A stretch of 64,000 nt of DNA from Fidelibacterota bacterium (GTDB taxonomy: Bacteria > Fidelibacterota > UBA8477 > JABMPR01): assembly GCA_018650795.1 (NCBI GenBank), contig JABIFG010000207.1, positions 1-64,000 of the forward strand, given 5' to 3'. Made by a program: the position numbers and the translations under genes. The stretch's first letter is position 1, and the number at the start of each line of letters is the position of its first letter. Shown piece after piece: positions 3,561-64,000 of the stretch. Below the pieces are notes generated by a model. The model saw only the letters and a program-made list of their open reading frames with translations. It was not told the DNA's origin and ran no database searches.

Positions 3561-3561
3561 T

Positions 3562-4767: not shown

Positions 4768-4815
4768 GAGATACTGGCAATAGACATAATATCACTACGG
4801 GACACTAAATTTTCC

Positions 4816-7321: not shown

Positions 7322-7342
7322 CCGTACTTTATTATTAGCGAT

Positions 7343-11970: not shown

Positions 11971-11971
11971 T

Positions 11972-14842: not shown

Positions 14843-14900
14843 GGTATACTTTTTCTTTAAGATGAATTCTCTTTCCGGGTGATCTTGCAGATGCAGCCAT

Positions 14901-14928
14901 CCCCGAGTGCAATAAATTACACTCGGGG
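14901..14928. repeat. 9-bp inverted repeat between operon segments
   Basis: Perfect arms CCCCGAGTG and CACTCGGGG around a 10-base AT-rich loop lie in the 107-bp gap between the stop of the multi-module protein and the TonB receptor start. No T tract follows on the minus strand, so it is not a classic intrinsic terminator. It could be an mRNA-stabilising or partially attenuating hairpin between segments of a long operon. That role is inferred. Confidence 0.6.
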
Positions 14929-14949
14929 TTTGACCACACTAGGATATGT

Positions 14950-17900: not shown

Positions 17901-18336
17901 ATGTTACATCATATTCATCCTGACAGGGTTCACAGGAGTTCCAACAAGTTGTGTCAGCAAGCACGTCAGCATCAACCACAGTAAAACCGAAAGTGGCATC
18001 ACCTTCATCTACAGCTGAATCACAAATTGATTGATCTGGTGGTCTTCCTTCAGGGCTTCCCCAACCACCGCCTATGAGATATAAAAAGCGGTACGACCCT
18101 GGAGCTAAATTAAGTGTATCAGAAAAAATGCCATCACCATCAGGATCTGTTAGTTCAGCACCCCAACCAGACCAGTTATCGAATTCTCCCGTGGCCCAGA
18201 TATTTGTACCATCTCCAATATCTGCACGTGCGGCATCTACGGCGATGATCACGTCATAAGTCTGCGCAGTCAACAGCGCAGGCAACAACATGAAAATTGC
18301 CAGTGTTAAAATAATGTAGTTACGTTTAGGTCGCAT
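14950..18336 (-). CDS. Multi-module glycan-binding surface protein with sorting domain
   Basis: I start it at the ATG at 18336 because GAGGAGGA (18343-18350) lies just upstream; the longer reading frame merely translates that ribosome site. About 1128 residues: signal peptide (LLPALLTAQ); two near-identical modules (about 12-225) with NIWATG(E/D)F and RFLYL(I/L)GGGWGSPEGRP, like CBM48/CBM20-type sandwiches; and a SDAYTDIAGTNFNPGWGQ module (about 245-400) also found twice in the protein at 39983-42307. A jelly-roll-like domain, a GCTDPTAINYDP repeat and three more sandwich modules follow. The last 90 residues are a YPNPFN sorting domain. No enzyme motif is visible, so a glycan-capture role is inferred. 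It follows the symporter gene by 50 bases. Confidence 0.75.
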   Translation of the reverse strand: MRPKRNYIILTLAIFMLLPALLTAQTYDVIIAVDAARADIGDGTNIWATGEFDNWSGWGAELTDPDGDGIFSDTLNLAPGSYRFLYLIGGGWGSPEGRPPDQSICDSAVDEGDATFGFTVVDADVLADTTCWNSCEPCQDEYDVTFIVDMANETVPDGSNIWATGDFGGWSGWDLELTDDNADGIYSATATVAAGTHRFLYLLGGGWGSPEGRPAVGSACSFPHPDDPADVTYGVVALFNDVVMDTICWNACVACDEIANSPLVAAPTPTELEVDVISIYSDAYTDIAGTNFNPGWGQATVYSEIQIEANNTMVYEGLNWQGINIGSADGGVAHDVSAKGYLHVDFWSMNSTALNVFPISISSGEQAYALPVGGDGWTSVDIRLDYFTDLGMVLTDIHQLKFDGNGDIYLDNIYFHGVPWTIPETLVLNGFETAADIAIGDTENWILDFSDDATPGLTWVTSTPVTGDGIPQDGVGAVQFNYSVENYYTYGGYAGLLHYEDDYLDITDHNYFSFHYRNYEDTSVDSSLAMRFILFEASDQPDPTKWEKDSVEVWYSFIEDDYILDQLDTEWNEIRIPLEDAGSIQEYSEGFHRTGWAGITGDNELDFSKIVGYSFEWVDPPWVTEIGDVTTGAIWIDNLAVIYSDDVYGCTDPTAINYDPLATVSDGSCLYETDVVDLTFELNMSLEEVSAEGVFLAGGSYFGSPGNYEFNDEGIDGDETAGDDIYTIVVQVLNNFSEDYTFTNGPSFDYKENIAGQDCAVDPWNDRHIEVGVNDTTVMTCFGQCTDDGSCGIVDVVNVTFRVNMQDEVVDAAGVYMAGGDIGEIGYVMDDTDADDIWEYTIEIPAGAAFGWKFRNGPTDGSWGGAWEDSDDLGNGGCGVGDYNDRTITSEVDLILPAFCFSSCFPCAPIHDVEVTFNVDMRAEAGFNPAVDAPYVISSDDEWDFSNPVLFTETAVSGVWSGSLTLSSRDTVNYLFAYAAGTFENMAGLECTVFDNGVDLDVRQLLTPIGDETEYDVPGVVFGSCNTVAVDDELLLPTEFLMSTYPNPFNPDVTIQYQLPAIEDVKIDIYNMLGQNVRSLLETRHAPGHYNVVWNGRNSYGQPMGTGIYFVVISRASGTSVMKVTLLK

Positions 18337-46126: not shown

Positions 46127-46335
46127 GAAAATAGAATTAGCACTATCTGTGAGCAAGGGAATAAACACCTCTTTTAACACGCCATACCTTTTTCTTTATC
46201 CCTACCATTTTACACCTCTCCTAACCAAAGATTAAAGCATTCTCATATATTAAGATTGTTTCATTTTCTCACTATCTGCTATTGTACACTACTACTATTG
46301 TTATCTTTTTCACGAGAATTAACTCAGGAGGAAAG

Positions 46336-47574
46336 ATGCAAAAACTATTTACCCTTTTACTCGTTGTACCTGTCATGTTTATGTGGAGTTGTGAGGACAC
46401 TAAAGATGAAGAAGAATTACCAGATCTAGCCCACGTCGGTTCTGCTGCCTGTGGTGATTGTCACACCGAAATTTATGCAGATTTTATTGATAGCGGCCAC
46501 CCTTACAAATTCAACATCGTTGATGGCGCTGCTCCAACCTACCCAAGTTTTGTTAACAACAGCCTGACCCTGCCTGCCAGTGAATCAGACTGGTCAAACA
46601 TTGCTGGTGTTATTGGTGGTTTTGGCTGGAAAGCTCGCTTTGTTGACATTACTGGTCACGTCCTTGGAACTGCTGAGAGTATTGTTCCTGGTACTGGTGC
46701 CAACCAACATAACTTCTTTGGTGATGGTGTTGGTGTTGATTGGGGATGGAATGATTATCACCCAAGTGATGTTAAAAAATACAACTATGGCTGTTTCAAA
46801 TGCCACACTACTGGTGGTTTTGAAACATCAAACCCAGATAGTTCATGGCTGAAGGTTCATCTCGATATAGATGCTCCAGAAACCATGGATTATTTCGCCT
46901 TTGGTGGAATCCAGTGTGAAGCCTGTCACGGTCAGGGAAGTCAACATGCAGTCGATGGCGACACGCAATATATCGAACGCGTAGTGACTAGCCGTCTCGA
47001 AGGTACCAAGGATGTAACTGATCTTTGTGGTGATTGTCATACACGCAACGCTGACAGATCAATTGCTGCTTCAAGCGGATTCACAAAACATCATGAACAA
47101 TATGATGAATACATCACTACCGATCATTACAATAATGGCCAAATGTCATGTATTGATTGTCATGATCCTCATAAACGTACCATTTGGAGTGGAGATTCTG
47201 TAATTCAGACTTGTGGATCTGATTGCCATGCCGACAAAACAACTATGAAGCACAATGCTGCAGCAAGTTGTAACAGTTGTCATATGCCATATTCATCCAA
47301 ATCTGGACAACAACGCGGTGCTTACACTGGCGATGTTAAATCTCACCTCTTTGCTATTAATACTGAAGCAGACTATGAGTTCTTTAACGATGATGGCGCC
47401 ACAGTAAGAAACGTTGATGGCAAAGCCATGCTCAGTCTGAAATATGCCTGCTATGGCTGTCACGTTGATGAAAATGGTCAAGGTGGATTTGCTACTGCAC
47501 CTGGCGACACAACACAGTATTCAATGAAGACTTTGCAAGTTCTATCTGACTATGCTGTAGGTATGCACGACTAA
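46336..47574 (+). CDS. Octahaem-type cytochrome c lipoprotein
   Basis: I start it at the ATG at 46336, five bases after AGGAGG (46326-46331); the longer frame has no ribosome site. It is 412 residues with a lipoprotein signal ending MFMWSC. There are seven CxxCH haem sites (CGDCH, CFKCH, CEACH, CGDCH, CIDCH, CNSCH, CYGCH) plus one CGSDCH of the CxxxCH type. It is probably an electron carrier or terminal reductase on the periplasmic face or outer membrane. A strong terminator follows. A two-component system and a second multihaem cytochrome lie downstream, suggesting one respiratory module. The substrate is unknown. Confidence 0.85.
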   Translation: MQKLFTLLLVVPVMFMWSCEDTKDEEELPDLAHVGSAACGDCHTEIYADFIDSGHPYKFNIVDGAAPTYPSFVNNSLTLPASESDWSNIAGVIGGFGWKARFVDITGHVLGTAESIVPGTGANQHNFFGDGVGVDWGWNDYHPSDVKKYNYGCFKCHTTGGFETSNPDSSWLKVHLDIDAPETMDYFAFGGIQCEACHGQGSQHAVDGDTQYIERVVTSRLEGTKDVTDLCGDCHTRNADRSIAASSGFTKHHEQYDEYITTDHYNNGQMSCIDCHDPHKRTIWSGDSVIQTCGSDCHADKTTMKHNAAASCNSCHMPYSSKSGQQRGAYTGDVKSHLFAINTEADYEFFNDDGATVRNVDGKAMLSLKYACYGCHVDENGQGGFATAPGDTTQYSMKTLQVLSDYAVGMHD

Positions 47575-47594
47575 AAAGATCTCCGATCAAGAAC

Positions 47595-47624
47595 AAAGGG
47601 GAGGCTCGTCCTCCCCTTTTTTTT
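47595..47624 (+). terminator. Intrinsic terminator after cytochrome gene
   Basis: Stem AAAGGGGAGG/CCTCCCCTTT with loop CTCGT, followed by a T-rich run to about 47624, 20 bases beyond the stop codon. Confidence 0.93.
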
Positions 47625-47665
47625 ATTTGATAATGTTTTCCGAGCCGGTTGAAAGTTAAGTTGCC

Positions 47666-48343
47666 ATGATGAAAATTCTACTTGTTGAAGATGAAAAAAG
47701 ATTAGCCCAACATCTTGGAACTCTCTTGCGAGAGAATAAATATAGCGTGACAACCGCCTATGATGGTAAGAGTGCCTGGGAGATAGTCACCACGGATGCG
47801 TTTGATGCTATCATACTCGATTGGCTACTTCCTGAGATATCTGGTGTTGAAATCTGTGAACGCCTCCGGCAAAAAGGTGATAAAACACCTATCCTATTTT
47901 TGACTGCTCAGTCTGCTATACATCACCGAATCAAAGGATTTGAATCCGGAGCAGATGACTATCTGACCAAACCCTTCAATTCAGAGGAATTGCTAATCAG
48001 ATTGGCAAGCCTAATTAGACGTAGCCACCAACCCCCTATTTCAATCTTTGATTCAAAAGGCTTCACCTTCGATGCTACCAAACACTATGTCTATTATGAT
48101 GGAAAATCCACCGAGTTATCACAGAAAGAATCAGCCATCCTAAATTTGCTCTTTCAACATCCTGGCGATGTTATCTCTCGAAAAACCTTTTTACAGGAAA
48201 TCTGGGGGTATGATTTTGACCCCAAGACCAATACACTTGAAGTGTACATTCGCATGTTACGAACCAAGCTGGACCAGCTCAGCTCCATGAAGCTGATATA
48301 TACCAAACGGGGCGAAGGTTATTACATAGAGAATGAAGCCTAG
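47666..48343 (+). CDS. OmpR-family response regulator
   Basis: 225 residues. The receiver domain has acidic EDE at 8-10, phosphoacceptor Asp52 in IILDWLLPE, Thr in FLTAQ and Lys in YLTKPFN. The C-terminal winged helix (about 130-222) contains LSQKESAILNLLFQHPGDVISR, LEVYIRMLRTKLDQ and YTKRGEGYYIE. It controls promoters with sigma-70-type polymerase. It overlaps the kinase gene by 11 bases. The likely targets are the flanking cytochrome genes, by position only. Confidence 0.93.
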   Translation: MMKILLVEDEKRLAQHLGTLLRENKYSVTTAYDGKSAWEIVTTDAFDAIILDWLLPEISGVEICERLRQKGDKTPILFLTAQSAIHHRIKGFESGADDYLTKPFNSEELLIRLASLIRRSHQPPISIFDSKGFTFDATKHYVYYDGKSTELSQKESAILNLLFQHPGDVISRKTFLQEIWGYDFDPKTNTLEVYIRMLRTKLDQLSSMKLIYTKRGEGYYIENEA

Positions 48344-49733
48344 GCTCCCTAACCTATCCATTAGATTTAAGATTATTTTTGCCCAGGCTGCCAGCCTGGC
48401 TGGGATTCTCCTTCTATTTACATTTATTTTGTCCATCCTACTGGATCAAGTATTGAATATGAACCTGGATAAATTCCTGCATATGCAATCTGATAATTTT
48501 CAAGCTACGATTACAGTTCAGAATGACCGTATTTCGTTTCATGATTTACATAGCAATTTTGAACATTCTGGAGCGGCTGATGATGACATTCCATTTTTTG
48601 TGCAATTCATCAATAACCAGGGCAGAACGATTATGCTCTCTGGTAATCTGGAAGGTCGACGACTTTACCACGGTGAGAACCTCCCATCCCGGGAAACTGT
48701 AGAGACCGTATTCTTTTTTGATAAACCATCAAGACGCTTGATCACACCTGTTCATATTCATCAACAACACCTGGGATGGCTCATCGTAACCATTCCCTTT
48801 AAATATCTCGATGATTTTAAAGACTATAAAAATAAAATTCTTATCGTCACCGGCAGTGTCGGGATTTTACTCTTCATCCTTTTGAGTATTCTTTTTGTAA
48901 AACTCGCCTTGAGACCTGTAAAGCAGTTAGCAAAAAGTGCAGAAGTACTGGCTGAACAATCTGAGATTAGCGCCCTGCCTGATATTGAAAGCAGGGATGA
49001 GATCGGTGATCTTACAAAGACCTTAAATAATCTCTTGCGTAAGGTAGGGCAATCCATGGAGACTCTGGAGCTATTTGCTGCAAACGTTTCCCATGAGTTG
49101 AAAACACCTCTGGCAATCATGCATTCTGAGATTTCTTTACTTCAGAAAAAAAGTGACTCTGCACAACAATATTCCCTGGACCTATTGAGTGAGGAAGTTG
49201 ATAGGATGCAGACCCTCATCGAGAACTTACTAGTTATCAGTAATTCTCAACGGCCCTATAAACTTTTACCCTCAGACATCTGGTTACAGGATTTTATCAG
49301 TGATGAGTCAGGTAGAATCCAGCGAATTTTTCGCAACAATAACGTGCATTTTGATTTTTCGAAAGTTGAATCCACCAAAGTCCATTCAGACATCTATTTG
49401 CTTCAGTTGGTGTTCGACAATCTCGTCCGAAACGCAGTACTCTATTCACCTGATAACTCAACCATATCCATATCGACTACAGCTGATGAGTCAGGTGTAT
49501 CCATTCATGTTTGTGATACGGGACCTGGCATAGCGGAGGCTGAGCTTAAGAAGATTCTTGAACCATTCGTCCGTGGAGAATCAACCATTCACCAGGCCAT
49601 GACGGGTAGCGGGTTGGGCTTATCTATTTCTACGTGGGCTATTGCGCTGTTAAAAGGTTCCCTCAAACTGGAGAATATCACACCTCATGGACTGCGAGCT
49701 TCAATTACCCTACCAAAGAATTCTCAGGATTAG
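48333..49733 (+). CDS. Sensor histidine kinase of the OmpR-type pair
   Basis: 466 residues: membrane helix 1 at about 14-38, periplasmic sensor domain at about 40-165, helix 2 at about 168-192, HAMP at about 190-245, H box with His254 in NVSHELKTPLA, N box FDNLVRNAVLYS, G1 CDTGPGI and G2 GSGLGLSIS. All motifs of a working kinase are present, in contrast to the kinase at 21920-23398. The start overlaps the regulator gene by 11 bases, and its stop overlaps the convergent cytochrome gene by four. The signal sensed is unknown. Confidence 0.92.
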   Translation: MKPRLPNLSIRFKIIFAQAASLAGILLLFTFILSILLDQVLNMNLDKFLHMQSDNFQATITVQNDRISFHDLHSNFEHSGAADDDIPFFVQFINNQGRTIMLSGNLEGRRLYHGENLPSRETVETVFFFDKPSRRLITPVHIHQQHLGWLIVTIPFKYLDDFKDYKNKILIVTGSVGILLFILLSILFVKLALRPVKQLAKSAEVLAEQSEISALPDIESRDEIGDLTKTLNNLLRKVGQSMETLELFAANVSHELKTPLAIMHSEISLLQKKSDSAQQYSLDLLSEEVDRMQTLIENLLVISNSQRPYKLLPSDIWLQDFISDESGRIQRIFRNNNVHFDFSKVESTKVHSDIYLLQLVFDNLVRNAVLYSPDNSTISISTTADESGVSIHVCDTGPGIAEAELKKILEPFVRGESTIHQAMTGSGLGLSISTWAIALLKGSLKLENITPHGLRASITLPKNSQD

Positions 49734-51256
49734 AAGTTTTTCAAATACTCTTCCCTGAAGTAAGTATTTTTGTGCTCCTCAAAGGATCGAAATTCCTGAT
49801 CCAGCAGGTATTGCAGGGGATTTTCTTCACCGAGTGACAGAATAGAATGACACAGTGTACACTCATCAGAAATGGCCACACCTGCTTCATCAACTAGATG
49901 CCGATTATGACATCTGAAGCAACCATCACTTTGCTCATGTTGCATAAAATTATGACACGAAAAACAGCCGAATTCTACACGATGACCAAGGTGATTCGGA
50001 TAAGTCCCCCAATCAATCTTCATGGCAGGATGAATATTGCGATCGTATATGGCTTTTACTGCCTCTATGGACCCAGTGAGCGATAGGAAATCAGTTTCGG
50101 GATACTCAATAGCATAATAGGATTCGAGTCTGTCCTCAATTGTTGAGAGTCCTGTTGCCTTATCGTCATAATGAGTGATAATTGCTGCCATCGCCTCACG
50201 CTTGATGTAGGGAATATCTGGGTCGATATCTCCCCTGGCCATCGCACGATCCAGTGCAGCATCAGGTTGCTCATAGATATGCGTAGCTCGGTTGTGACAA
50301 TCCACGCAATCCATCACTCGAGGTTCCGTATGCTCATATGTGGAATCAGCTAAATGTTGGTTAATATATCTTTTAAACTCTCCATTAGGCTGTTTGACCT
50401 CGACCCAGATCATATCCTCGCGTTGATCATCAACCGAGCTATAACGGACTTCATTGTTTTCAGCAATATGCCAATGAATCCCTGATCCAACTCCATTGAT
50501 CGCATCAACCTTCAGATTAAGAGTGGTATACTGTTTTGTATTGGCTTCATCATCGCGATAACGCTCGATTTTAACCAGTTTTGATCCATAGTGTTTTTCC
50601 GGCCAGTGGCATTTCCCACAGGTCTCTGTTGCTGGTCTGAGATTGTGTATTGGAGTACCGATAGGTTTATCATAAAGATCAAACATAGCTGCTACTGCCT
50701 GCCAGGCACCGTTTACTTTTGCCGAGGCCAATGCTTTAACACCCTCCCCAATATGACAGTCTACGCAGGGAACTCTAGAATGTGGTGAGACCGAGTAGAC
50801 TTGCCATTCAGGGCCCATGATAGTATGACAGGCTGTCCCACAAAATTCTGATTCATCCATATAGTGCATAGCACTCGACCCAGCCGCGACGATAAAAAGG
50901 ACATTTACAATAGTCAGGATACCTACTACTGGAACAACCTTCTCCCAGAAGTTGCTCCCTCCCACTTCCCCATTATCCAGTTTTTCCAAAAACACATGAT
51001 GGAGGGTTCTCCCAGTTTCTTTTTTCTGTTTTCGCCAGGCAAAGGGCAAGAGGGCTAGTCCGATTACAAACAGAATCGGTATTAAAAAATAGGTGACAAT
51101 CCCGGTATAGGTGCTTCTAAACACGCCAATCAGGGACATACCCTCTAAAATGAAGAACGAAATAAAGGCTGTACTTGCTAATATGACCCCAATTTTACCA
51201 ATCCAATTCATGAACAACAATTGAATGAACATCAAATAGCGTTTAAAAAGGTCCAT
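49730..51256 (-). CDS. NapC/NirT-like multihaem cytochrome c with three membrane helices
   Basis: 508 residues. Membrane helices lie at about 19-40, 51-73 and 107-127. The haem domain starts with CGTACH (a CxxxCH site, Cys139-His144) and continues TIMGPEWQVYSVSPHSRVPCVDCH, as in NapC/NirT quinol oxidases. It also has CGKCH, CVDCH, CFSCH, CFRCH and CTLCH, making six normal sites plus one CxxxCH. It probably takes electrons from menaquinol and passes them to a periplasmic multihaem partner, perhaps the lipoprotein at 46336. The three helices and seven haems exceed the usual one-helix, four-haem NapC. Confidence 0.85.
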   Translation of the reverse strand: MDLFKRYLMFIQLLFMNWIGKIGVILASTAFISFFILEGMSLIGVFRSTYTGIVTYFLIPILFVIGLALLPFAWRKQKKETGRTLHHVFLEKLDNGEVGGSNFWEKVVPVVGILTIVNVLFIVAAGSSAMHYMDESEFCGTACHTIMGPEWQVYSVSPHSRVPCVDCHIGEGVKALASAKVNGAWQAVAAMFDLYDKPIGTPIHNLRPATETCGKCHWPEKHYGSKLVKIERYRDDEANTKQYTTLNLKVDAINGVGSGIHWHIAENNEVRYSSVDDQREDMIWVEVKQPNGEFKRYINQHLADSTYEHTEPRVMDCVDCHNRATHIYEQPDAALDRAMARGDIDPDIPYIKREAMAAIITHYDDKATGLSTIEDRLESYYAIEYPETDFLSLTGSIEAVKAIYDRNIHPAMKIDWGTYPNHLGHRVEFGCFSCHNFMQHEQSDGCFRCHNRHLVDEAGVAISDECTLCHSILSLGEENPLQYLLDQEFRSFEEHKNTYFREEYLKNF

Positions 51257-54262: not shown

Positions 54263-54336
<74 letters not shown>

Positions 54337-54357
54337 CTCAAGTAAGAACAACAACTT

Positions 54358-54768: not shown

Positions 54769-56655
54769 TTACCATTCGCTAGGCCATTGATTGCCATATT
54801 CTACGTATCTAGGTTCGAGATTGAATACAATAAGATTGCTTCTAGTTCGTGTCATTGAAGTGTAAATCATATTATCAAAGGCTTCTACATCCGCTTGCTT
54901 GGGAAGTGGTGTTATTAGCAAGATTACATTCGTCAATTCCCATCCTTTAAAGCTATGGATTGTACTCATTTTTAAGCGGGAATCACCCATCCAAAAAGAC
55001 ATCTTGTGCTTATGGGTTGGAGATTCTGAATCCTCTTCAAAGACATGATTTACCTCAAGAGGCTTAAAACTTTCGACCAACTTCCATCCAATGCTGTGAC
55101 TGTGTGCCAGCACAATAATATCAGAGGGATGTATTTTCTTGCCCTCAGTTAGCCAATTATAAGCCAACCTTATTTTGCTCTCATAACTATCACCCCTGCC
55201 CAAGTTTCTCCACACATAGTGAGGTGCAAAAAGATCTCCTTGAAAGGGTATTGGTTCAGGTGTAGCTCCAACTCCTGGAAGAAATTTATTTGCAAAGCGA
55301 TTTGTCTCAACTAGGAGTCTTTCAGGTAATCTATAGCTTTCCTTTAACAATCTCCAAGGACCTCGGAATTTGCTATTAGTCATTGAATCAACCCAGGAGT
55401 ACTCTCGCTTGTATAAATTCTGACGTTCATCCATCACGAAAAGTATTTCGTCATTCTTTGTCATAAAACCCAACAACATATCATAATAGGATCTGCAAAA
55501 GTCCTGACCCTCATCAATAAGAATCGCATCATACTTTCGATTCTTAACATTTATTCCTCGGTCTAATGATTTCACCACGAAAGAAGGCAATATATCGTCT
55601 AGGTATTCATCGTCGCTCGTTGTGTTCTTGGGGAACTTTATACCGTTTTCACTCAAGTAGTTTTTAATCAAACCATGGAAGTGAGTGAACTCTATCATAT
55701 CCCACTTGAACCCGAACCGTGCTCTTGAAATTTGATCTCTTATATAGTGCCAAAGTGTTATGTTGTATGTGATTATCAATACTTTCTTACCCTGTGAAGC
55801 TATATTTGCGGCCCGCTGAGCGATTACGAGCGTTTTTCCACTCCCTGCGACCCCCCTTAATCTCTGATGAGTATCAGGTGCAGGTGTGATATGCCTGCGC
55901 TGATCTGGGGATAGTGTAATTTTTGTACCTTGTTCAATAGAATGATATGGCGGAGTGAGCCAAAATCTGATTTCCGGGTACCATTTAGAAATTGGTGACC
56001 AGGAGTGTTCAATCTGGTGGAAAGGATTGATTTTCTCAATGGAAGCTTCTTTGCCTCGGAGAGTCTCACCACAAAAGATTCGTAAGTATTTAGATCTAGT
56101 TTTAAAGAGATCATCAATCTGAATTTGCGAAGCATTATGGAAATATAGACCTGCTGAAAAAGCAGCCTTATTCTTTGGGTTCTTTTTAATGTCAGATGAA
56201 ATCCGCGGCACATACAAATTGGTTAAATTCTCTATGTAACGATATGCTTGCTTGATGGGGCTGGGGATTTTCTGATTCCCTGATGCAGTTTTTACATGGT
56301 ATTCTGTGTAGGCTCTTTTTTTCTTTAGAGTCTTGTCATAATACGAGGTAGCAGATTTACTGTAAAGATCAAGATTCCAATCTTTCACCTCGTAAACAAC
56401 AATACCTATCTTGGGATTTCCAATAACAATATCGGGGCGATCTCCATTCAGATAGGGTTGGACAAATATTTCCCAATCTTGTGAGAGATGCGTGTCAAGG
56501 AATTTAGCTAAGTATAATTCACCCTGAGTGAGAGGTGTCTTGAAATTATTGATTTTATCCCAGCTTGGAAAAATGCGACCTGGGACATATCCAGAGGCAT
56601 CTCGTGATTGTTCGAGCCGAGCGTGGTTATCAGGTGAAAGTTTGGGAATAGTCAT
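54769..56655 (-). CDS. NERD nuclease-domain SF1 helicase (UvrD-like)
   Basis: 628 residues. The NERD domain (about 40-150) has a PD-(D/E)xK-like set: Asp75 in RPDIVIG and Glu89/Lys91 in VVYEVKDW. The helicase part has Walker A GVAGSGKT (268-275), Walker B DEGQD (381-385), the MSTIHSFKGWELTNVIL motif and the YTSMTRTRSNLIVF motif of UvrD-type SF1 enzymes. Nuclease and helicase in one chain suggests DNA unwinding with cleavage, as in anti-phage helicases. It is the last gene of the island, 52 bases after the HDR-motif protein and on the same strand. Defence function is inferred from architecture and neighbours. Confidence 0.85.
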   Translation of the reverse strand: MTIPKLSPDNHARLEQSRDASGYVPGRIFPSWDKINNFKTPLTQGELYLAKFLDTHLSQDWEIFVQPYLNGDRPDIVIGNPKIGIVVYEVKDWNLDLYSKSATSYYDKTLKKKRAYTEYHVKTASGNQKIPSPIKQAYRYIENLTNLYVPRISSDIKKNPKNKAAFSAGLYFHNASQIQIDDLFKTRSKYLRIFCGETLRGKEASIEKINPFHQIEHSWSPISKWYPEIRFWLTPPYHSIEQGTKITLSPDQRRHITPAPDTHQRLRGVAGSGKTLVIAQRAANIASQGKKVLIITYNITLWHYIRDQISRARFGFKWDMIEFTHFHGLIKNYLSENGIKFPKNTTSDDEYLDDILPSFVVKSLDRGINVKNRKYDAILIDEGQDFCRSYYDMLLGFMTKNDEILFVMDERQNLYKREYSWVDSMTNSKFRGPWRLLKESYRLPERLLVETNRFANKFLPGVGATPEPIPFQGDLFAPHYVWRNLGRGDSYESKIRLAYNWLTEGKKIHPSDIIVLAHSHSIGWKLVESFKPLEVNHVFEEDSESPTHKHKMSFWMGDSRLKMSTIHSFKGWELTNVILLITPLPKQADVEAFDNMIYTSMTRTRSNLIVFNLEPRYVEYGNQWPSEW

Positions 56656-56707
56656 AATTAGCCAAATAGTCGCAAAGGATCAACTAAATCCTAAGAGCTA
56701 CTCTTGA

Positions 56708-57652
56708 TTAGTCGGATGTGACTCTTCGCATGGATTTTCGTCTGGCGATAAATTCCCCCATAGATTTCCACAGTTCACTTACCTCCTGTACCTGTCCATC
56801 GTCTCCACTAAAAATGGACCTCACAGCCGGATTAGTAAGCTTGGTCTCGTGGACTACTCCCTTTGATACTATGTCCAAGCCAGAAGGAAAATTGAGAAGC
56901 ATTTGATCAAATAGAATCCAGCGATCATGGAACGATACACTTCGAGGACTTTCTTCCACTACAAAATCAATTTCTAAACCTTCACCAACCTCGCGCTCAA
57001 TTTGCTTTACAGTATCATCCTTGTGAGATTTTGAGGAAATGATAGTGACTTTTGGTAAAATTGCTTGTAACGTCATAACTGCTTTTAATATCGGAATCAG
57101 GTTTTCTTTTACCTTTCTGGCATCAGACATTAGAAAAGAATCACATACTAGTACATTCTTTGTAGGAACGGAATAGTGCCCGAGAAACGTACTCCAATCA
57201 TGCATTTTCCCGGGCACAATACTTGGATTTTCTTTGCCACTAATCTTAGGCCATCTCTTTTTAATGGTACTCAGATTGAATATAGGTTGATTGATTGACT
57301 GATTGAGCTTCACAATTTCGTTTTCAGTGAATAATTCAGTGAAGGAGCTGTCAAATTGGGAATAGGCACTCTTTTGGATATCGGTAGTGTCGCCCTCGCT
57401 ATCTTTCCCACTACTATAGGGACTCAAGCCAGCATTCGAGGCATTTCCAAGAAGGCTCCTCAATAGTGGAGATTCTCCAATTCGAATCCTGCTCACATCT
57501 CTAAATATTTTACCCTTCGCATTCATTAGAAAATTTCTGAATAGATCCAAGTTCTCCATGGGCAAACCCGCCATAGTCTTTGCCATAAATTCTGCATCAA
57601 ATTTCTGAATAAATGAGGCCGTAAGGAAGTATTGAGGCCAGTTAGCATTCAT
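56708..57652 (-). CDS. HDR-motif protein (possible PLD-like nuclease), uncharacterised
   Basis: 314 residues. I do not recognise the N-terminal half. The C-terminal half reads as an alpha/beta domain: KNVLVCDSFLM, ILPKVTIISSKSHKDD, then SFHDRWILFDQMLLNFPSGLD with His242, Arg244 and Asp249. That block resembles the HxR-type motif of degenerate phospholipase-D-like domains such as those linked to MIT proteins. Only one such motif is seen, so it may dimerise or be inactive. Its start overlaps the AAA ATPase gene by four bases (ATGA), strongly suggesting the two work together. The function remains open. Confidence 0.6.
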   Translation of the reverse strand: MNANWPQYFLTASFIQKFDAEFMAKTMAGLPMENLDLFRNFLMNAKGKIFRDVSRIRIGESPLLRSLLGNASNAGLSPYSSGKDSEGDTTDIQKSAYSQFDSSFTELFTENEIVKLNQSINQPIFNLSTIKKRWPKISGKENPSIVPGKMHDWSTFLGHYSVPTKNVLVCDSFLMSDARKVKENLIPILKAVMTLQAILPKVTIISSKSHKDDTVKQIEREVGEGLEIDFVVEESPRSVSFHDRWILFDQMLLNFPSGLDIVSKGVVHETKLTNPAVRSIFSGDDGQVQEVSELWKSMGEFIARRKSMRRVTSD

Positions 57653-59319
57653 TTCTGGACTTCCCAGAGCTTCTCAAGCAAACTCGTAGAACTATCGTAG
57701 AATCCTTCAGGAATTGGTTTGTCGAAGAATCCATTCGGATCAATTTTTATCTGTTCAATTTTCCCATTTCCCAGATGATTATTTGATACATAATAAATGA
57801 CGATATCATCATGTGAAAGAACACCCTCCGCGACTTTTAATTGTAATGCTCGAAGAAGTGCTTCGGAATGTGTTTCCACTATATATTGGTTCGATAAGTG
57901 ACTTCTCACTACAGGTTCGGTGTGTGGATGGGCTGCTAAATACCTATTGAGACCATCAAGAGGTGAATCAGGGTTAAGCCCCATTGCAGGATTCGTCGCT
58001 ACCAGATCCGTTATTAATAAATCAGCAAGTTTACTCTGAGCTAAAGGGTGCAAGTGCAATTCTGGTTGCTCAAGTAGGATCGTTTTTCTGGAGCGGGTTT
58101 TCGAGAATATCATAGGTAAAACTTGTGAGTATCCATATCCAACATCGGCTATCGATGACTCGTGTCCCGTTATATTATCCCGCAAAATGATGCGGAAGAG
58201 AGACTCCCGATCAGAGATTCGTTGGATTTCCATTTCCTTCTCAAATCCCAATAATCGTAGATAGTAATTGACAAAAGCAGAGAACTCCTCATCCTTGAAA
58301 TCTTTGCGCCCTGTTAGTTCTAAAAGCTCAACTCTTGTATAGAAAGGTTTGGGCTTTTCCCTGAGCGGTGGGAAGAATTCCATCTCACGAAGCAAAATAT
58401 CTGTTTTCTCTTTTAGAAACTTCATTTCTTTATTTGACTTTTCCATGAAGTCGCTCAACTCTTTCCCTGCGAGAAGGATTGATTTTCTGATGTAGGTTAT
58501 AAGCCGTTTTCGAATAGCTTTTGCATCAAGTGGCTTACTGGAATCAAGTCCAGCTAATAATTTTTCCCAGTTTGAGTTAATTTCTTCACGTGAAGTATCA
58601 TCAAAGGTAGGACTAAGATTATCGTCTCCAAATCCAGAGATGTTTGCAACATTTCTGACCATCGGGCTTCCCCATTCAGAGGGGAATATGCCTCTTTGAT
58701 CCGTCTCACCCGGCAGGTAACGATTCAGGTATTTTTCTACCATCGCCCCAAATGAACCGAGTTCTTGCTCATGTTGAGCCACCCAATTCGATTGTTTTTT
58801 TAGATATTCGCATATGAACTTTCTATATCTTTCAACTATATGCCTGGAGGGTGCAACCTGGAATAATTCACCACGTATTAAGGCGGTTTCATTGTGCCAA
58901 AGATGACAGGAGTAATTGAATGGGGGCTCTCCAATATTCCCGATTTTTCCACTGATTGAATCATTGGAGTTAATAATTAATTGTAGATCAATACTCGCTG
59001 GTCTATGTTTCTCTTTCCCAAATATCTCCTCTTCAGTCAATGGGAATGCCACGTGAGAGGATTGCAATCTAATTTGAATCGGTTCGTGGTTGCCTCGATG
59101 ACTTGCTTCCTTGAAACTAGATAGATCGACCAATGGTCCTCGCCACTTAACTAGTTGTCCCATATCTGTAGTATTTGACTGGACTAAAAGGGCAAGCAGC
59201 TTTTGGATACTACTCTTCCCAGCGCTATTCGGGCCGATAAGAACTGTTATTGGTTTTATATCTAAAGATTGTTTGGATTTAAACGATTTGTAATTTTTGA
59301 ATTCGAGCTTTGAAATCAC
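57649..59319 (-). CDS. AAA ATPase with DUF3696 (OLD/RecF-like), probable defence ATPase
   Basis: 556 residues. N-terminal ISKLEFKNYKSFKSKQSLDIKPITVLIG and Walker A GPNSAGKSS (29-37) are typical of RecF/OLD-type ABC ATPases. A long coiled or helical middle (about 170-330) follows. Then come TILLEQPELHLHPLAQSKLADLL (Walker B), YIVETHSEALLRALQ and a DUF3696-like tail (IKIDPNGFFDKPIPEGF). There is no TOPRIM nuclease domain, unlike Gabija GajA or OLD. The nuclease function could come from the HDR protein, which it overlaps by four bases, or from the NERD helicase. Defence role inferred. Confidence 0.83.
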   Translation of the reverse strand: MISKLEFKNYKSFKSKQSLDIKPITVLIGPNSAGKSSIQKLLALLVQSNTTDMGQLVKWRGPLVDLSSFKEASHRGNHEPIQIRLQSSHVAFPLTEEEIFGKEKHRPASIDLQLIINSNDSISGKIGNIGEPPFNYSCHLWHNETALIRGELFQVAPSRHIVERYRKFICEYLKKQSNWVAQHEQELGSFGAMVEKYLNRYLPGETDQRGIFPSEWGSPMVRNVANISGFGDDNLSPTFDDTSREEINSNWEKLLAGLDSSKPLDAKAIRKRLITYIRKSILLAGKELSDFMEKSNKEMKFLKEKTDILLREMEFFPPLREKPKPFYTRVELLELTGRKDFKDEEFSAFVNYYLRLLGFEKEMEIQRISDRESLFRIILRDNITGHESSIADVGYGYSQVLPMIFSKTRSRKTILLEQPELHLHPLAQSKLADLLITDLVATNPAMGLNPDSPLDGLNRYLAAHPHTEPVVRSHLSNQYIVETHSEALLRALQLKVAEGVLSHDDIVIYYVSNNHLGNGKIEQIKIDPNGFFDKPIPEGFYDSSTSLLEKLWEVQK

Positions 59320-59350: not shown

Positions 59351-59905
59351 TCATGCAGACACTTGATTAAGGTTTTGGTCGAATGCTGAATGTAGAGTCA
59401 GTTGTAAATTCGCAAATTGCATCCCAATGATGGCATGTTGGGTAACTTGGTGATAAAGGTTGATAAATCCAATATTGAATATGGGATGAGCACCTATTTC
59501 TAACTCCGAAATTCCATACCCCTGAACCATGCTATGTTTCCTGTAGATTCCCACACCCTCAAATCCTATGAACCACGAGCGATAGTCAACAGTAGCATCA
59601 CTAAATGCAAATTTATTCGTTCGCTTATCATTTCGAATCTCATTTTCTGGACGATAGATATAGATAATATCAACATCAAAATGAAAGCGTAAGATTCCGA
59701 AGCCGAATTGAACACCTTTGTGATCTGTTTTTACAAAACTGTTAATGACAAAACGAAATAGACCACCACCTAACTTGCAAGAAAAGGTTCGAAAACTAAA
59801 ATCTTCACCCCTCTCTTCCTGTACACTAGGATCGATTAACCATGTTACCGCTTGACCAACTAGTGTGGCGAATCGTGGTATTCTCGATATCGTTGCTTCG
59901 TTCAT
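59351..59905 (-). CDS. Hypothetical protein of the island
   Basis: 184 residues that I do not recognise. The sequence is rich in aromatic and beta-type segments (FSCKLGGGLFRFVINSF, FGILRFHFDVDIIYIY, SWFIGFEGVGIYRK) with no signal peptide, membrane helix or nucleotide-binding motif. It lies 31 bases before the ATPase gene and 65 after the NE0113-like gene on the same strand, so it could belong to either unit. The compact beta-rich form would fit a binding or sensor protein. Confidence 0.6.
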   Translation of the reverse strand: MNEATISRIPRFATLVGQAVTWLIDPSVQEERGEDFSFRTFSCKLGGGLFRFVINSFVKTDHKGVQFGFGILRFHFDVDIIYIYRPENEIRNDKRTNKFAFSDATVDYRSWFIGFEGVGIYRKHSMVQGYGISELEIGAHPIFNIGFINLYHQVTQHAIIGMQFANLQLTLHSAFDQNLNQVSA

Positions 59906-59970: not shown

Positions 59971-61110
59971 CTAGTCTAGAAAGTGGATAATATTCGGATT
60001 TAAAATAACGCCAATAGAAACGTCCTTCCGGTTTCCCTGAGTAAGAAAGAGCTTCTTTGGCGCAATGTCTTCTCGACGAAGAGGATGTAACTCACTATTG
60101 CGAAGAACTGAGCCTAATCTGGATATCTCTTCATAGAGTGAGGGGATCAATTCGTAGTCAGATGTTTGTTGTCGTTTTTCTCTCGTCCGGTAAAAGTGAC
60201 CACCTTCACCAGATATTATTGCATGCTCTGCTAAAATTAGAGTTCTGGAGTCAGCCAGGAGAGTTTCCTGATCCGCCAGGCATTCCTGACAACCAGAACA
60301 ATCATCGGGACATAGAGCGTTCACCCTGCGCTTTAAGAAATATCTATAATATGAAGCTTCCCGAGGGGTGATTTTTACCTCTTCCCCATCCACACATAAG
60401 ATATTCTTTTCGATCTCAATTCGTTCAATGGGGCGGGCAGCGTACAGCGACTCCTGGATTTCTCGAACCATGCTCTCTGTGGATTGATTGAGGTTTCGCG
60501 AGAGATAGCGTCCTACTCGAAGCACAGGAACATCAGATACTGACAAGAATTGAGTTGGATCTGCTGGCTCACTTGGAAAAAACCACTCACGGTCCATCAT
60601 GCGTTCATCGGGGGCAATAATATGGATTAACTCATCATCAGTTCGACCATATAATTGGAATGCTAGAGCCATAATTGCACTCTGCGTTTTTCTTCCTCCA
60701 GCAACTGTTGCTGTGAGACGAACACCATCCGTGTCAGTGTAGTGCTTTATCCAATTAGAGATCATATTAGATGCAGCTTCATTCTCCTCAGAAGTCAGCA
60801 AATCCTGAATTTCTTCGCCAGTGGTTTCATTTTCGATGACCATTATATCTGAAATCGTGAAAGGGATTTGTCCACTTTTCATCCCTAGAGCTGCTTCTAA
60901 CTGGACTAAAACACCATCGGTAAACATGCTTTTTACCAGTAGATCTCTACCTTTAGTGGTCGTGATAACTTTGATATCGGAGAACTGCCGATTGATCCCA
61001 TAATGAGGAGAATAATAGTAATACAAACATTCTGAAAGTACTGCAGGTGAGGTTCCCATCACCGCTACAAATGCTTCAGAATACTGTGAAGAGATATTGT
61101 GATTGTCCAT
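59971..61110 (-). CDS. NE0113-family CRISPR-associated (CARF-like) protein with HTH and Cys cluster
   Basis: 379 residues. The N-terminal domain (about 12-195) has AVMGTSPAVLSECLYYYY, IKVITTTKGRD, the strong AGGRKTQSAIMALAFQLYGR motif (137-155) and a HIIAPDE strand. This matches what I remember of the NE0113 (TIGR02584) Cas family, a Rossmann-like CARF relative expected to bind or cleave cyclic oligoadenylate. Residues about 228-330 look like a winged helix (VDGEEVKITPREASYYRYF) carrying four Cys (267, 271, 274, 277) that could hold zinc or an iron-sulphur cluster. No cas1, cas10 or CRISPR array is visible. It follows the recombinase gene by 44 bases. Confidence 0.72.
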   Translation of the reverse strand: MDNHNISSQYSEAFVAVMGTSPAVLSECLYYYYSPHYGINRQFSDIKVITTTKGRDLLVKSMFTDGVLVQLEAALGMKSGQIPFTISDIMVIENETTGEEIQDLLTSEENEAASNMISNWIKHYTDTDGVRLTATVAGGRKTQSAIMALAFQLYGRTDDELIHIIAPDERMMDREWFFPSEPADPTQFLSVSDVPVLRVGRYLSRNLNQSTESMVREIQESLYAARPIERIEIEKNILCVDGEEVKITPREASYYRYFLKRRVNALCPDDCSGCQECLADQETLLADSRTLILAEHAIISGEGGHFYRTREKRQQTSDYELIPSLYEEISRLGSVLRNSELHPLRREDIAPKKLFLTQGNRKDVSIGVILNPNIIHFLD

Positions 61111-61154: not shown

Positions 61155-62198
61155 TCACTCATCATCCTGTTCAATGAGAAAATCCGGTAATCCATTCAAA
61201 TGTTTCTCGGCCAGTTCCGGATTCGGGTGCGTGTAGATCTTTGTCGTCTCACTTGAAGTATGCGCCATTAGCACTTGGCGATCCTGAATTGTCAGGCCAC
61301 CATCTCTAAGAAGATTGTTGTAAGTCACCCTAAAGCTGTGGAGTGTGGCTTTAGGTAGTTCAGCTACTGAGAGCAGATCCTGCAGAAACAACCTTGGATG
61401 TGCTAAATTATCATTAAGCTTCCGTTCACTCTCAGAATACAGATCTGGAAACACAGGACCACTGAGACCTTTGATATCTCCGATTTCACGGACGAGGATG
61501 GCTGCTAGAGGCAGTTCATGTACCCGCCGAGACTTCCTTATCAACTGGGTAATACGATGTCGCTTTATATCGATATGCTCGAACTTCAGCAGGGCTACAT
61601 CCCCGGCTCTCAGTCCAGTGTATAGCAGAAAGCTGTAATAGAGTTTCCATTCTCCTGCATTCTTGAAGATGGCTTTTAGATCTATAGCATTAAGTGGACG
61701 ATGCTTCAGTTCGTGAACTACTCTTGGGGGCGTTGCTAGATCACACGGATTCCTTTCTATCAACCCCTCTCTGACACACTGCTTGAGCATCCTTGAAATG
61801 ATTCCAAGGTGATTCTTTTTGGTCTTTGACTTCTGTTTCATCGAATCCATATAGCCATCTATATGCTGTACTTGGATTTCAGGTATACTTTGGATACCAA
61901 TGCCAGTGAGGTACTTCCCAAACTTGGCAAGTACCCCTTTTGCGATTAGGACAGTTTGTTCAGACTTCCTATCTTCAAGGAAGTCTCGGTGTTGATCTAT
62001 ATACTCCAGAACATCTATTGTTTCCTCTGGCTCGAAGAACGATGTATCACCTTGGGAGAGTTTGAAATCCCATGCATCCTGGATTCGTTCAGCTGTACGG
62101 CGTCTATGCGTACCCGTTGAGATCCTCACTCTCCTACCGTGTACACTAGCGGAGTACCATAGATATGGTGAATCCGCTCTTTTGTATAGTTTTGACAT
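61155..62198 (-). CDS. Tyrosine recombinase/integrase
   Basis: I start it at the ATG at 62198, seven bases after AGGAAGAA (62206-62213); the longer frame to 62240 overlaps the upstream HTH gene. It has 347 residues. A SAM-like core-binding domain lies at about 50-150. In the catalytic domain, LLYTGLRAGDVALL holds the first Arg, LHSFRVTYNN the HxxR pair, and LMAHTSSETTKIYTH the second His and the Tyr nucleophile. All key residues except the lysine, which I did not place, are present, so it is probably active. It could drive integration at tRNA-fMet. Excision partners may be the small HTH proteins upstream. Confidence 0.9.
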   Translation of the reverse strand: MSKLYKRADSPYLWYSASVHGRRVRISTGTHRRRTAERIQDAWDFKLSQGDTSFFEPEETIDVLEYIDQHRDFLEDRKSEQTVLIAKGVLAKFGKYLTGIGIQSIPEIQVQHIDGYMDSMKQKSKTKKNHLGIISRMLKQCVREGLIERNPCDLATPPRVVHELKHRPLNAIDLKAIFKNAGEWKLYYSFLLYTGLRAGDVALLKFEHIDIKRHRITQLIRKSRRVHELPLAAILVREIGDIKGLSGPVFPDLYSESERKLNDNLAHPRLFLQDLLSVAELPKATLHSFRVTYNNLLRDGGLTIQDRQVLMAHTSSETTKIYTHPNPELAEKHLNGLPDFLIEQDDE

Positions 62199-62214
62199 AA
62201 TTGAGTTCTTCCTA

Positions 62215-62412
62215 TTAATAAACCGACGAGACTCGGTCATTGATATTGACTTTAGTTGAATCGAGATATCTCAGATATGCTGATTCAGAGATTCTGTACT
62301 TGTTACTGATGAGGTAGGCTTCGAGCTTACCGTAGTTAATGAGATCGAGTACCGTTCGGTATCCGAGTTTAAGACGATCCGCAACTTCACGGACTGTTAG
62401 AAAATCTTGCAT
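62215..62412 (-). CDS. Excisionase-like HTH_17 protein
   Basis: 65 residues. FLTVREVADRLKLGYRTVLDLINYGKLEAYLISNKYRISESAYLRYL is a complete MerR-like winged helix of the HTH_17 (excisionase) family. GGGGA precedes the ATG. It ends 16 bases before the recombinase start. It is the best candidate for the directionality factor or for a repressor of the integrase. Confidence 0.82.
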   Translation of the reverse strand: MQDFLTVREVADRLKLGYRTVLDLINYGKLEAYLISNKYRISESAYLRYLDSTKVNINDRVSSVY

Positions 62413-63071: not shown

Positions 63072-63737
63072 CTACACCACCTTTGGCTGAATGGATGAAC
63101 CTTCATCACACACATTCTGATAATTCAGGAGCCACTCAGGTTTGAAACGGTAATGACCCGTCTCCCCTTGTGAACGAGTGAACTCAAGATCTCCAGAAAG
63201 CGCTAGTCGCCGTACTTGTGATTCTGATACATGAAGCATCCGTGCGGCTTGTGACGCTTTCAGCAGTTTCTCAACATCTTCACCTGCATGATGAGGTCCC
63301 CAAATATTGGGAAACGCACGCATCACCATACTTAGATATCCTGAATCGACCTTTAGGATTCCGTTAAGCTGCTGCTTGGTTAGTTCAAGAGGAACATCAC
63401 GAAAATTCTCGTCAATCTTTGAGATATCTACAATTGGTAAGAGGAACTCTAATAGACTACGATACTCTGCATTTTGAGGATCATCAAGAAAGTCTACTAT
63501 GAAACTGTTTATTCCCTCAAGGCTACATCCAGCTTCTTGTAACATCCCCAATTGAAGATCCACCCAAGCCTTCGCTGAAACTGGAAGCAGGTTAACCTGG
63601 GCGGTCAGTTCTTCAGACATTCCGATTCCATATTTTGGTTGGGATCCACAGCTATCGATATGCTCCTCGATATTCATTCTTTCAGTATTATCCTCAGCGA
63701 ACGTAACCAACGGAGTTGACTCAATAGAATTATCCAT
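63072..63737 (-). CDS. DNA-binding protein with C-terminal HTH_17 domain
   Basis: I choose the ATG at 63737, preceded by AGGGGG; it overlaps the upstream gene by eight bases. It has 221 residues. About 150 unrecognised acidic residues are followed by LLKASQAARMLHVSESQVRRLALSGDLEFTRSQGETGHYRFKPEWLLNY, an HTH_17/excisionase-type winged helix. The same DNA-binding form appears in two other island genes, but here it is fused to a long N-terminal domain. It is probably a regulator of the element. Confidence 0.72.
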   Translation of the reverse strand: MDNSIESTPLVTFAEDNTERMNIEEHIDSCGSQPKYGIGMSEELTAQVNLLPVSAKAWVDLQLGMLQEAGCSLEGINSFIVDFLDDPQNAEYRSLLEFLLPIVDISKIDENFRDVPLELTKQQLNGILKVDSGYLSMVMRAFPNIWGPHHAGEDVEKLLKASQAARMLHVSESQVRRLALSGDLEFTRSQGETGHYRFKPEWLLNYQNVCDEGSSIQPKVV

Positions 63738-63930
63738 TTTGAACCCCCTGAAGTAAGATTTCATCTAACCACTCTTTGATAAAGAGCAGCTTGCCAGTTC
63801 CACCATTGGTACGGGTGAACTTCACTCGACCTTTGTAGACCTGATTTCTTAACCATGAATCTGAAACTCTGCAATACTCAGCAGCTTCCCTGATCGTCAG
63901 ATATTGTTGTTTTTCATTAGATTGGGTCAT
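63730..63930 (-). CDS. Small HTH_17 DNA-binding protein
   Basis: I start it at the ATG at 63930, six bases after AAAGGTG; the longer frame begins at 63972. It has 66 residues. YLTIREAAEYCRVSDSWLRNQVYKGRVKFTRTNGGTGKLLFIKEWLDEILLQ is a full HTH_17 (excisionase/MerR-like) winged helix. It heads the visible run of island genes and overlaps the next gene by eight bases. The remaining 70 bases to the window end show no further gene. Confidence 0.78.
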   Translation of the reverse strand: MTQSNEKQQYLTIREAAEYCRVSDSWLRNQVYKGRVKFTRTNGGTGKLLFIKEWLDEILLQGVQNG

Positions 63931-64000
63931 TTTGACACCTTTAACTTTATTGGAATCCATTATTGAATTCAATAGGTGTTATGTCCGTGATTCAGGAGGG

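What the first reader, a model, noticed from the sequence alone, without database searches (positions are those of the whole stretch)
54769..59319. Candidate new defence cassette: AAA-DUF3696, HDR protein, NERD-SF1 helicase
An OLD/RecF-like ATPase without TOPRIM overlaps by four bases a protein with one PLD-like HDR motif and is followed by a NERD nuclease-helicase, all on one strand in an integrase-bearing island. It parallels Gabija (ATPase plus UvrD helicase) but replaces the nuclease parts. I know of no named system with this trio.
Basis: partly seen in the sequence, partly recalled or inferred. Interest (0 to 1): 0.72.

Follow-up and report, generated by a model that had tools for sequence, protein, structure and literature searches.

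The report
ATPase plus PLD-like defence gene pair
An uncultured marine bacterium carries, on a mobile DNA element, a probable two-gene anti-virus module (a sensor ATPase and a small phospholipase-D-like protein) beside a CRISPR-type signal-sensing gene and an independent nuclease-helicase; it is a new variant of a known class of defence systems, not the new three-gene system that was proposed.

Summary
The three genes and their motifs are real, but the trio is not a conserved unit; two of its genes are. Every relative of the HDR protein found (two other Neomarinimicrobiota genomes, three Bacteroidota plasmids) lies directly behind an AAA-DUF3696 ATPase. The NERD-helicase moves independently: 10 plasmid and 3 same-phylum loci examined show no AAA-HDR pair. 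Two predicted models of the HDR protein, both of modest confidence, match the PLD-like domain of MITD1 first, so it is probably a single-motif PLD-like effector. The class is already catalogued with other partners: Menshen (DUF262-ATPase-NsnC, where NsnC also carries HDR) and HEC-03 (ATPase-PIN). This is not Menshen: NsnA is absent and a profile test does not join HDR to NsnC. The host has a Cas6-CARF-Cas1-array locus, but no Cas10 or RAMP was found. Verdict: new variant of a known kind. The open idea worth testing is control of an AAA/PLD-like effector by cyclic oligoadenylate. No function was shown.

The parts
57649..59319 (-). AAA ATPase with C-terminal DUF3696, no TOPRIM (GTG start); Walker A K35, Walker-B-like ILLEQPE
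   Evidence: PADLOC best NsnB 1e-47, HEC-03B 4e-40
56708..57652 (-). HDR protein, 314 aa; predicted PLD-like (MITD1-type) C-terminal domain, H242-D243-R244; overlaps the ATPase gene by 4 nt
   Evidence: no family match
54769..56655 (-). NERD nuclease + SF1 (UvrD-like) helicase; neighbour, probably an independent defence gene
   Evidence: C3a187 NERD+UvrD 1e-88; contexts
59971..61110 (-). CARF5 / Cas_NE0113 protein, 379 aa, with a C-terminal Cys cluster (C267, C271, C274, C277); possible sensor of the cassette
59351..59905 (-). 184-aa orphan protein between CARF5 and the ATPase; coding by codon score, no relative found
61155..62240 (-). tyrosine integrase of the carrying element
63072..63972 (-). 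two excisionase-type HTH genes (63072-63764 and 63730-63972)
54263..54337 (+). tRNA-Met, likely insertion site of the element (inferred; no second copy of its 3' end in the window)

Best explanation
The core is a two-gene restrictive or abortive defence module. A DUF3696 AAA ATPase of the OLD/RecF/AriA kind, with no nuclease of its own, senses an invader and holds or licenses a downstream effector whose gene overlaps its own. Here the effector is a single-motif PLD-like (MITD1-type) protein with an HDR signature, which when activated probably attacks nucleic acid. The class is modular: the same type of ATPase is paired elsewhere with PIN proteins (HEC-03) and with NsnC (Menshen). The downstream NERD-helicase is a separate defence gene carried by the same mobile element. 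Shown: gene order and overlap, conserved pairing, the HDR motif, partner modularity, absence of TOPRIM. Inferred: fold of the HDR protein (modest-confidence models), effector activity, role of the ATPase. Not shown: any protection from phage.
For: HDR relatives found by sequence (G023, G183) and by profile (Prevotella, Hymenobacter, Persicobacter; E 4e-9 to 9e-6 in a small set) all lie directly behind an AAA gene of the DUF3696 type. Partners of such ATPases are enriched in HDR even between families without BLAST similarity: 11 of 13 partner ORFs of 240-420 aa carry it, against about 7 of 151 other ORFs; counted once per family, 4 of 7, p = 4e-4. Other members have PIN partners. Loci lie in type I RM operons, beside McrBC genes or in type III CRISPR. 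Foldseek of two models lists four MITD1 chains first, PLD enzymes below.
Against: Both HDR models are weak (pLDDT 52.7 and 60.9, pTM 0.45 and 0.66; TM to MITD1 0.28-0.56). The MITD1 domain is not known to be a nuclease (my knowledge). The Asp at +7 after the His is not conserved in the two closest relatives. Only six loci of this HDR family were found, and the enrichment count was set up after the motif had been seen. No Pfam, PADLOC or NCBIfam model recognises the HDR protein. No functional data exist.
Confidence: 0.62

Rival explanations
1. The five same-strand genes CARF5, 184-aa orphan, ATPase, HDR protein and NERD-helicase are one cassette of type III CRISPR ancillary genes. CARF5 senses cyclic oligoadenylate made by a type III complex, or tunes its level, and gates the ATPase-HDR effector; the cassette works in trans with the host's CRISPR locus.
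For: CARF5 is 41% identical over its full length to the CARF5 that heads the G183 type III-D operon, which also holds an AAA-HDR pair. G006 has CARF5-Cas10-RAMPs-AAA followed by a gene cut off by the contig end. The own genome has Cas6-CARF5-Cas1-array on C210. A relative of the NERD-helicase lies beside type III-A genes in Deinococcus and another near a RAMP gene, cas1 and cas2 in Euhalothece. Gaps between the five genes are 66 nt or less.
Against: No RAMP or Cas10 was found in the own genome, though it is 91% complete in 355 contigs. In G023 and on the Bacteroidota plasmids the pair stands without a CARF gene in the stretches seen. Defence genes cluster in islands anyway. Whether this CARF5 binds a ligand is unknown.
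Confidence: 0.22
2. One reading: ATPase, HDR protein and NERD-helicase are one dedicated three-gene, Gabija-like system.
For: One strand, short gaps (4-nt overlap, then 52 nt), shared island.
Against: Ten plasmid loci and three same-phylum loci with NERD-helicase relatives show no AAA-HDR pair, and the other five HDR loci show no NERD-helicase in the stretches seen.
Confidence: 0.08
3. The pair is a diverged Menshen (NsnB-NsnC) that lost NsnA or replaced it by CARF5 or the 184-aa protein.
For: NsnB is the best PADLOC model; same order; NsnC carries HDR too.
Against: No NsnC model hit; hhalign between the HDR family and NsnC E 0.16, although the one aligned stretch is the predicted first strand; genuine NsnB proteins score 284-402 bits against 162 here; no DUF262 gene.
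Confidence: 0.2
4. The genes are cargo without a defence role, for example DNA-processing genes of the mobile element itself.
For: Integrase, excisionase-type HTH, RadC-like and other mobile-element-type genes lie on the same contig.
Against: Relatives occur inside type I RM and type III CRISPR operons, not with element maintenance genes.
Confidence: 0.08

Closest known systems
Menshen (NsnA-NsnB-NsnC)
   Same: AAA ATPase of the DUF3696 type followed at once by a small HDR-bearing protein; the window ATPase's best PADLOC match is NsnB
   Different: No NsnA (DUF262); HDR protein longer and not joined to NsnC by profile comparison; CARF and NERD-helicase beside it instead
HEC-03 (PADLOC candidate: ATPase HEC-03B + small protein HEC-03A, which looks like a PIN domain)
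   Same: Same type of ATPase, same two-gene layout; a full example is in this host genome on contig C36
   Different: Partner is PIN-like, not an HDR protein
PARIS (AriA-AriB)
   Same: ATPase of the same broad kind plus a separate effector; AriA 2.6e-26
   Different: Partner shows no AriB match
Gabija (GajA-GajB)
   Same: OLD-like N-terminal ATPase and an SF1 helicase close together
   Different: No TOPRIM in the ATPase; the helicase carries NERD and is not co-conserved with the ATPase
Type III-D CRISPR ancillary genes (CARF5, Csx1)
   Same: A CARF5 homologue heads the gene run; the G183 pair lies in such an operon
   Different: No Cas10 or RAMP gene in the island or found in the host genome
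PADLOC C3a187 NERD+UvrD
   Same: Full-length match of the third gene, 1e-88
   Different: A model name only; no description of its function could be read here

Membership tests
Menshen | NsnA, a DUF262 protein, in the operon | tested here: not met
   No DUF262 or NsnA hit in any island protein; NsnA is DUF262 in reference loci. The DUF262 gene is reported as needed for Menshen defence (PMC10952713)
Menshen | NsnB ATPase | tested here: inconclusive
   NsnB is the best model (161.6 bits) but below the 284-402 bits of ATPases in NsnA-bearing loci
Menshen | NsnC as third gene | tested here: not met
   No PADLOC NsnC hit; hhalign E 0.16. Position and HDR motif are shared
HEC-03 | HEC-03A (PIN-like) partner | tested here: not met
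   HDR protein has no HEC-03A hit
Gabija | GajA with C-terminal TOPRIM | tested here: not met
   No TOPRIM family in Pfam; GajA match limited to residues 2-51
Gabija | GajB UvrD-like helicase | tested here: inconclusive
   GajB 4e-11, but C3a187 1e-88 and a NERD domain
PARIS | AriB partner | tested here: not met
   No Pfam or PADLOC hit for the HDR protein
PLD superfamily, MITD1 (MIT_C)-like | PLD-like fold with one HDR-type half site | tested here: inconclusive
   Top four Foldseek hits for both models, E 3e-4 to 5e-3, but modest-confidence models; no sequence match in the PDB
Type III CRISPR-Cas ancillary cassette | CARF protein in the gene run | tested here: met
   PF09623 1.5e-20; CARF5 2.5e-43
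Type III CRISPR-Cas ancillary cassette | Cas10/RAMP effector complex in cis or in the same cell | tested here: inconclusive
   None in the island; none found in the 91%-complete, 355-contig genome; Cas6, CARF5, Cas1 and an array exist on C210
Any defence system | Protection from phage | not testable with these tools
   Needs an experiment

The most novel reading that the evidence does not exclude
A multi-component CARF system: a CARF5 sensor coupled to an AAA-DUF3696 ATPase and a MITD1-type PLD-like effector, found inside type III-D CRISPR operons and also as a stand-alone mobile cassette that listens to the host's cyclic-oligoadenylate signal or to another one. This would be a new kind of cOA-controlled effector.
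Probability: 0.18. Interest if true: 0.72.

Novelty: new variant of a known kind. Interest (0 to 1): 0.45.

Why it matters
If right, DUF3696 ATPases form a plug-in defence class whose effector slot holds PIN, NsnC or MITD1-like PLD proteins, so the ATPase would be the common sensor and the partner the exchangeable weapon. A prokaryotic relative of the ESCRT-associated MITD1 domain acting as a defence effector would also be of evolutionary interest. The CARF neighbour makes one question directly testable: can a type III CRISPR second messenger switch such an ATPase-effector pair?

Tried and rejected
Single-protein scan of genome contigs with the HDR protein: nothing. Alignment-based scans: nothing in viral contigs, only the already known G183 locus in genome contigs. 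tblastn of two HDR proteins in plasmids and phages: no match; the plasmid relatives were reached only through their ATPases. The weak HDR hit in G006:C4 lies in a stretch of housekeeping genes with no ATPase pair and was dropped. The weak Cas10-palm hit on C50 is a GGDEF-EAL protein. HDR = NsnC: not supported by hhalign. Gabija and PARIS rejected on missing TOPRIM and AriB. A second copy of the tRNA-Met 3' end as att site: only one copy in the window. Sigma-70 promoter scan: no more sites than shuffles. The papers most relevant to Menshen (Millman 2022; NAR 2025 gkaf357, cited in PMC12839542) are not held; nothing is claimed from their content.

Full report
OBSERVATION. ATPase 57649-59319 (556 aa, GTG start) has AAA_15, AAA_21 and DUF3696 matches and no TOPRIM; it ends in ATGA shared with the start of the HDR gene 56708-57652. 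The HDR protein (314 aa) matches no Pfam, NCBIfam, PADLOC or PHROG family at useful E-values. The NERD-helicase 54769-56655 matches NERD, UvrD-helicase and UvrD_C_2 and PADLOC C3a187 NERD+UvrD over its full length, 1e-88. K35, H242, K91 and K274 are correct. Two same-strand genes upstream were not in the finding: a 184-aa orphan (59351-59905) that is coding by codon score and has no relative found, and a CARF protein of the Cas_NE0113/CARF5 family (59971-61110). A tyrosine integrase (61155-62240) and excisionase-type HTH genes follow; the contig ends at 67,415 with RadC-like and other mobile-element-type genes. A tRNA-Met lies at 54263-54337 at the other side.

IS THE TRIO A UNIT? No. A search of 245 genomes of the phylum with the HDR protein and with a profile gave two further real relatives, G023 (28% identity, 5e-23) and G183 (25%, 5e-7). 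In both, the gene directly upstream is an AAA ATPase of the same type. G183 is a Neomarinimicrobiota MAG (JACNLC010000048.1), which gives the phylum of the window. Through their ATPases, plasmid loci were reached: in Prevotella, Hymenobacter and Persicobacter the next gene is an HDR-family protein by profile. The Persicobacter ATPase is annotated in fragments. None of these five loci shows a NERD-helicase in the stretch seen; for the plasmids that is only about 4 kb on each side. In the other direction, relatives of the NERD-helicase occur on 44 plasmids; of ten neighbourhoods read none has an AAA-HDR pair; one is beside type III-A CRISPR genes, one near a RAMP gene, cas1 and cas2, one beside type I RM genes. 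Three same-phylum loci do not have the pair either, by inspection.

WHAT IS THE HDR PROTEIN? Six family members share W153, D171 and H242-D243-R244. Two AlphaFold2 models, full length (pLDDT 52.7, pTM 0.45) and C-terminal 189 aa (pLDDT 60.9, pTM 0.66), made from three-sequence alignments, both give four chains of the MITD1 PLD-like domain as the first four PDB hits, with PLD enzymes below. The models are weak and the TM-scores low (0.28-0.56), so this is a lead supported twice, not a proof; the two models share the same three sequences and are not independent. Before the search I had noted the likeness of the HDR...G-L-D stretch to MITD1 from memory (note). In the window the motif is H-x-R-x4-D, but the D is not conserved.

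A MODULAR CLASS. Genes directly behind AAA-DUF3696 genes fall into groups: HDR proteins of several families without BLAST similarity (this family; NsnC in Klebsiella and Campylobacter; Azospirillum; Acetobacter) and PIN-like proteins (Azotobacter, Aeromonas, Rhodococcus, A. soli, and contig C36 of this same genome). Of 13 partner ORFs of 240-420 aa, 11 carry HDR, against about 7 of 151 other ORFs (Pseudoalteromonas has it at another position); counted once per family, 4 of 7, p = 4e-4. The motif was chosen after it had been seen, so the p-value is indicative. PADLOC names two of these combinations: NsnA-NsnB-NsnC (NsnA is the DUF262 gene, NsnB the ATPase; NsnC is the HDR protein) and HEC-03A/B. 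That NsnABC is Menshen is my knowledge; PMC10952713 describes Menshen as including a DUF262 protein needed for defence and a predicted OLD nuclease. The window ATPase scores best with NsnB (161.6 bits) but lower than ATPases in NsnA-bearing loci (284-402 bits), and hhalign does not join HDR and NsnC (E 0.16), although the one stretch that aligns is the predicted first strand.

TYPE III CRISPR LINK. In G183 the pair follows a type III-D operon: CARF5, Cas6-like, Cas10, RAMPs, then ATPase, HDR, a small ORF and a CARF-HEPN Csx1 gene. Its CARF5 is 41% identical to the window's over 382 columns. G006 has CARF5-Cas10-RAMPs-AAA and then a gene cut by the contig end. CARF5 relatives were found in 7 of 245 genomes, several in type III operons. 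The own genome has a Cas6-CARF5-Cas1 locus with a repeat array (37-nt repeats at 70-nt period) on C210, but searches for RAMPs and the Cas10 palm found none. So a type III partner in the cell is possible but not shown. The gaps CARF5-184aa-ATPase-HDR-helicase are 65, 31, -4 and 52 nt, which fits one transcript, but no promoter evidence was obtained.

MECHANISM. Most likely the ATPase senses and the HDR protein executes. ATP-dependent assembly with a trigger (phage DNA ends, a phage protein, or a CARF-relayed signal) would release or activate the PLD-like effector to cut nucleic acid. Steps shown: pairing, coupling, motif conservation. Steps inferred: trigger, substrate, direction of control. 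The NERD-helicase most likely acts on its own, as its relatives stand alone.

VERDICT. Observation confirmed; trio interpretation not upheld; the pair is a new variant of the known AAA-DUF3696 plus effector kind. Interest 0.45; higher if the CARF link proves functional.

Noticed in passing
L054 (G000:C36) 135-1971, minus strand: The same genome holds a second AAA-DUF3696 pair, ATPase (HEC-03B, 3.5e-228) plus a PIN-like protein similar to HEC-03A relatives.
   Followed up: partly
L017 (G000:C210) 3563-8425: Cas6-CARF5-Cas1 and a second, weakly Cas1-matching ORF beside a CRISPR array (37-nt repeat, 70-nt period), with no Cas10 or RAMP genes found in the genome.
   Followed up: partly
window 59351-59905 (-): 184-aa orphan protein, coding by codon usage, no relative in any search, between CARF5 and the ATPase.
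   Followed up: partly
L063 (G180:C25) 1357-8715: Cluster of a RecF-like AAA ATPase, an Hsp70-like protein, a UvrD-like helicase and a NERD-helicase, all on one strand; looks like another defence locus.
   Followed up: no
L022 6953-8184, L023 6938-8176, L033 4504-5684: The ATPase-PIN-like pair is followed by an annotated RNA ligase gene on three plasmids of different genera, which suggests a three-gene system with RNA cutting and sealing.
   Followed up: no
L061 (G202:C68) 8521-18001 and L058 (G241:C189): CARF5-headed type III-D type operons, in G241 of the window's own genus, with further CARF-like genes.
   Followed up: no
L056 (G038:C3) 4218-8833: Very long (1132-aa) AAA-DUF3696 ATPase followed by a 405-aa partner without HDR, in a cluster with a Dam-like methyltransferase and a DEAD-type helicase.
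   Followed up: no
window 46282-51256: Multihaem cytochrome genes (CxxCH motifs) flanking a response regulator and histidine kinase pair, outside the island.
   Followed up: no
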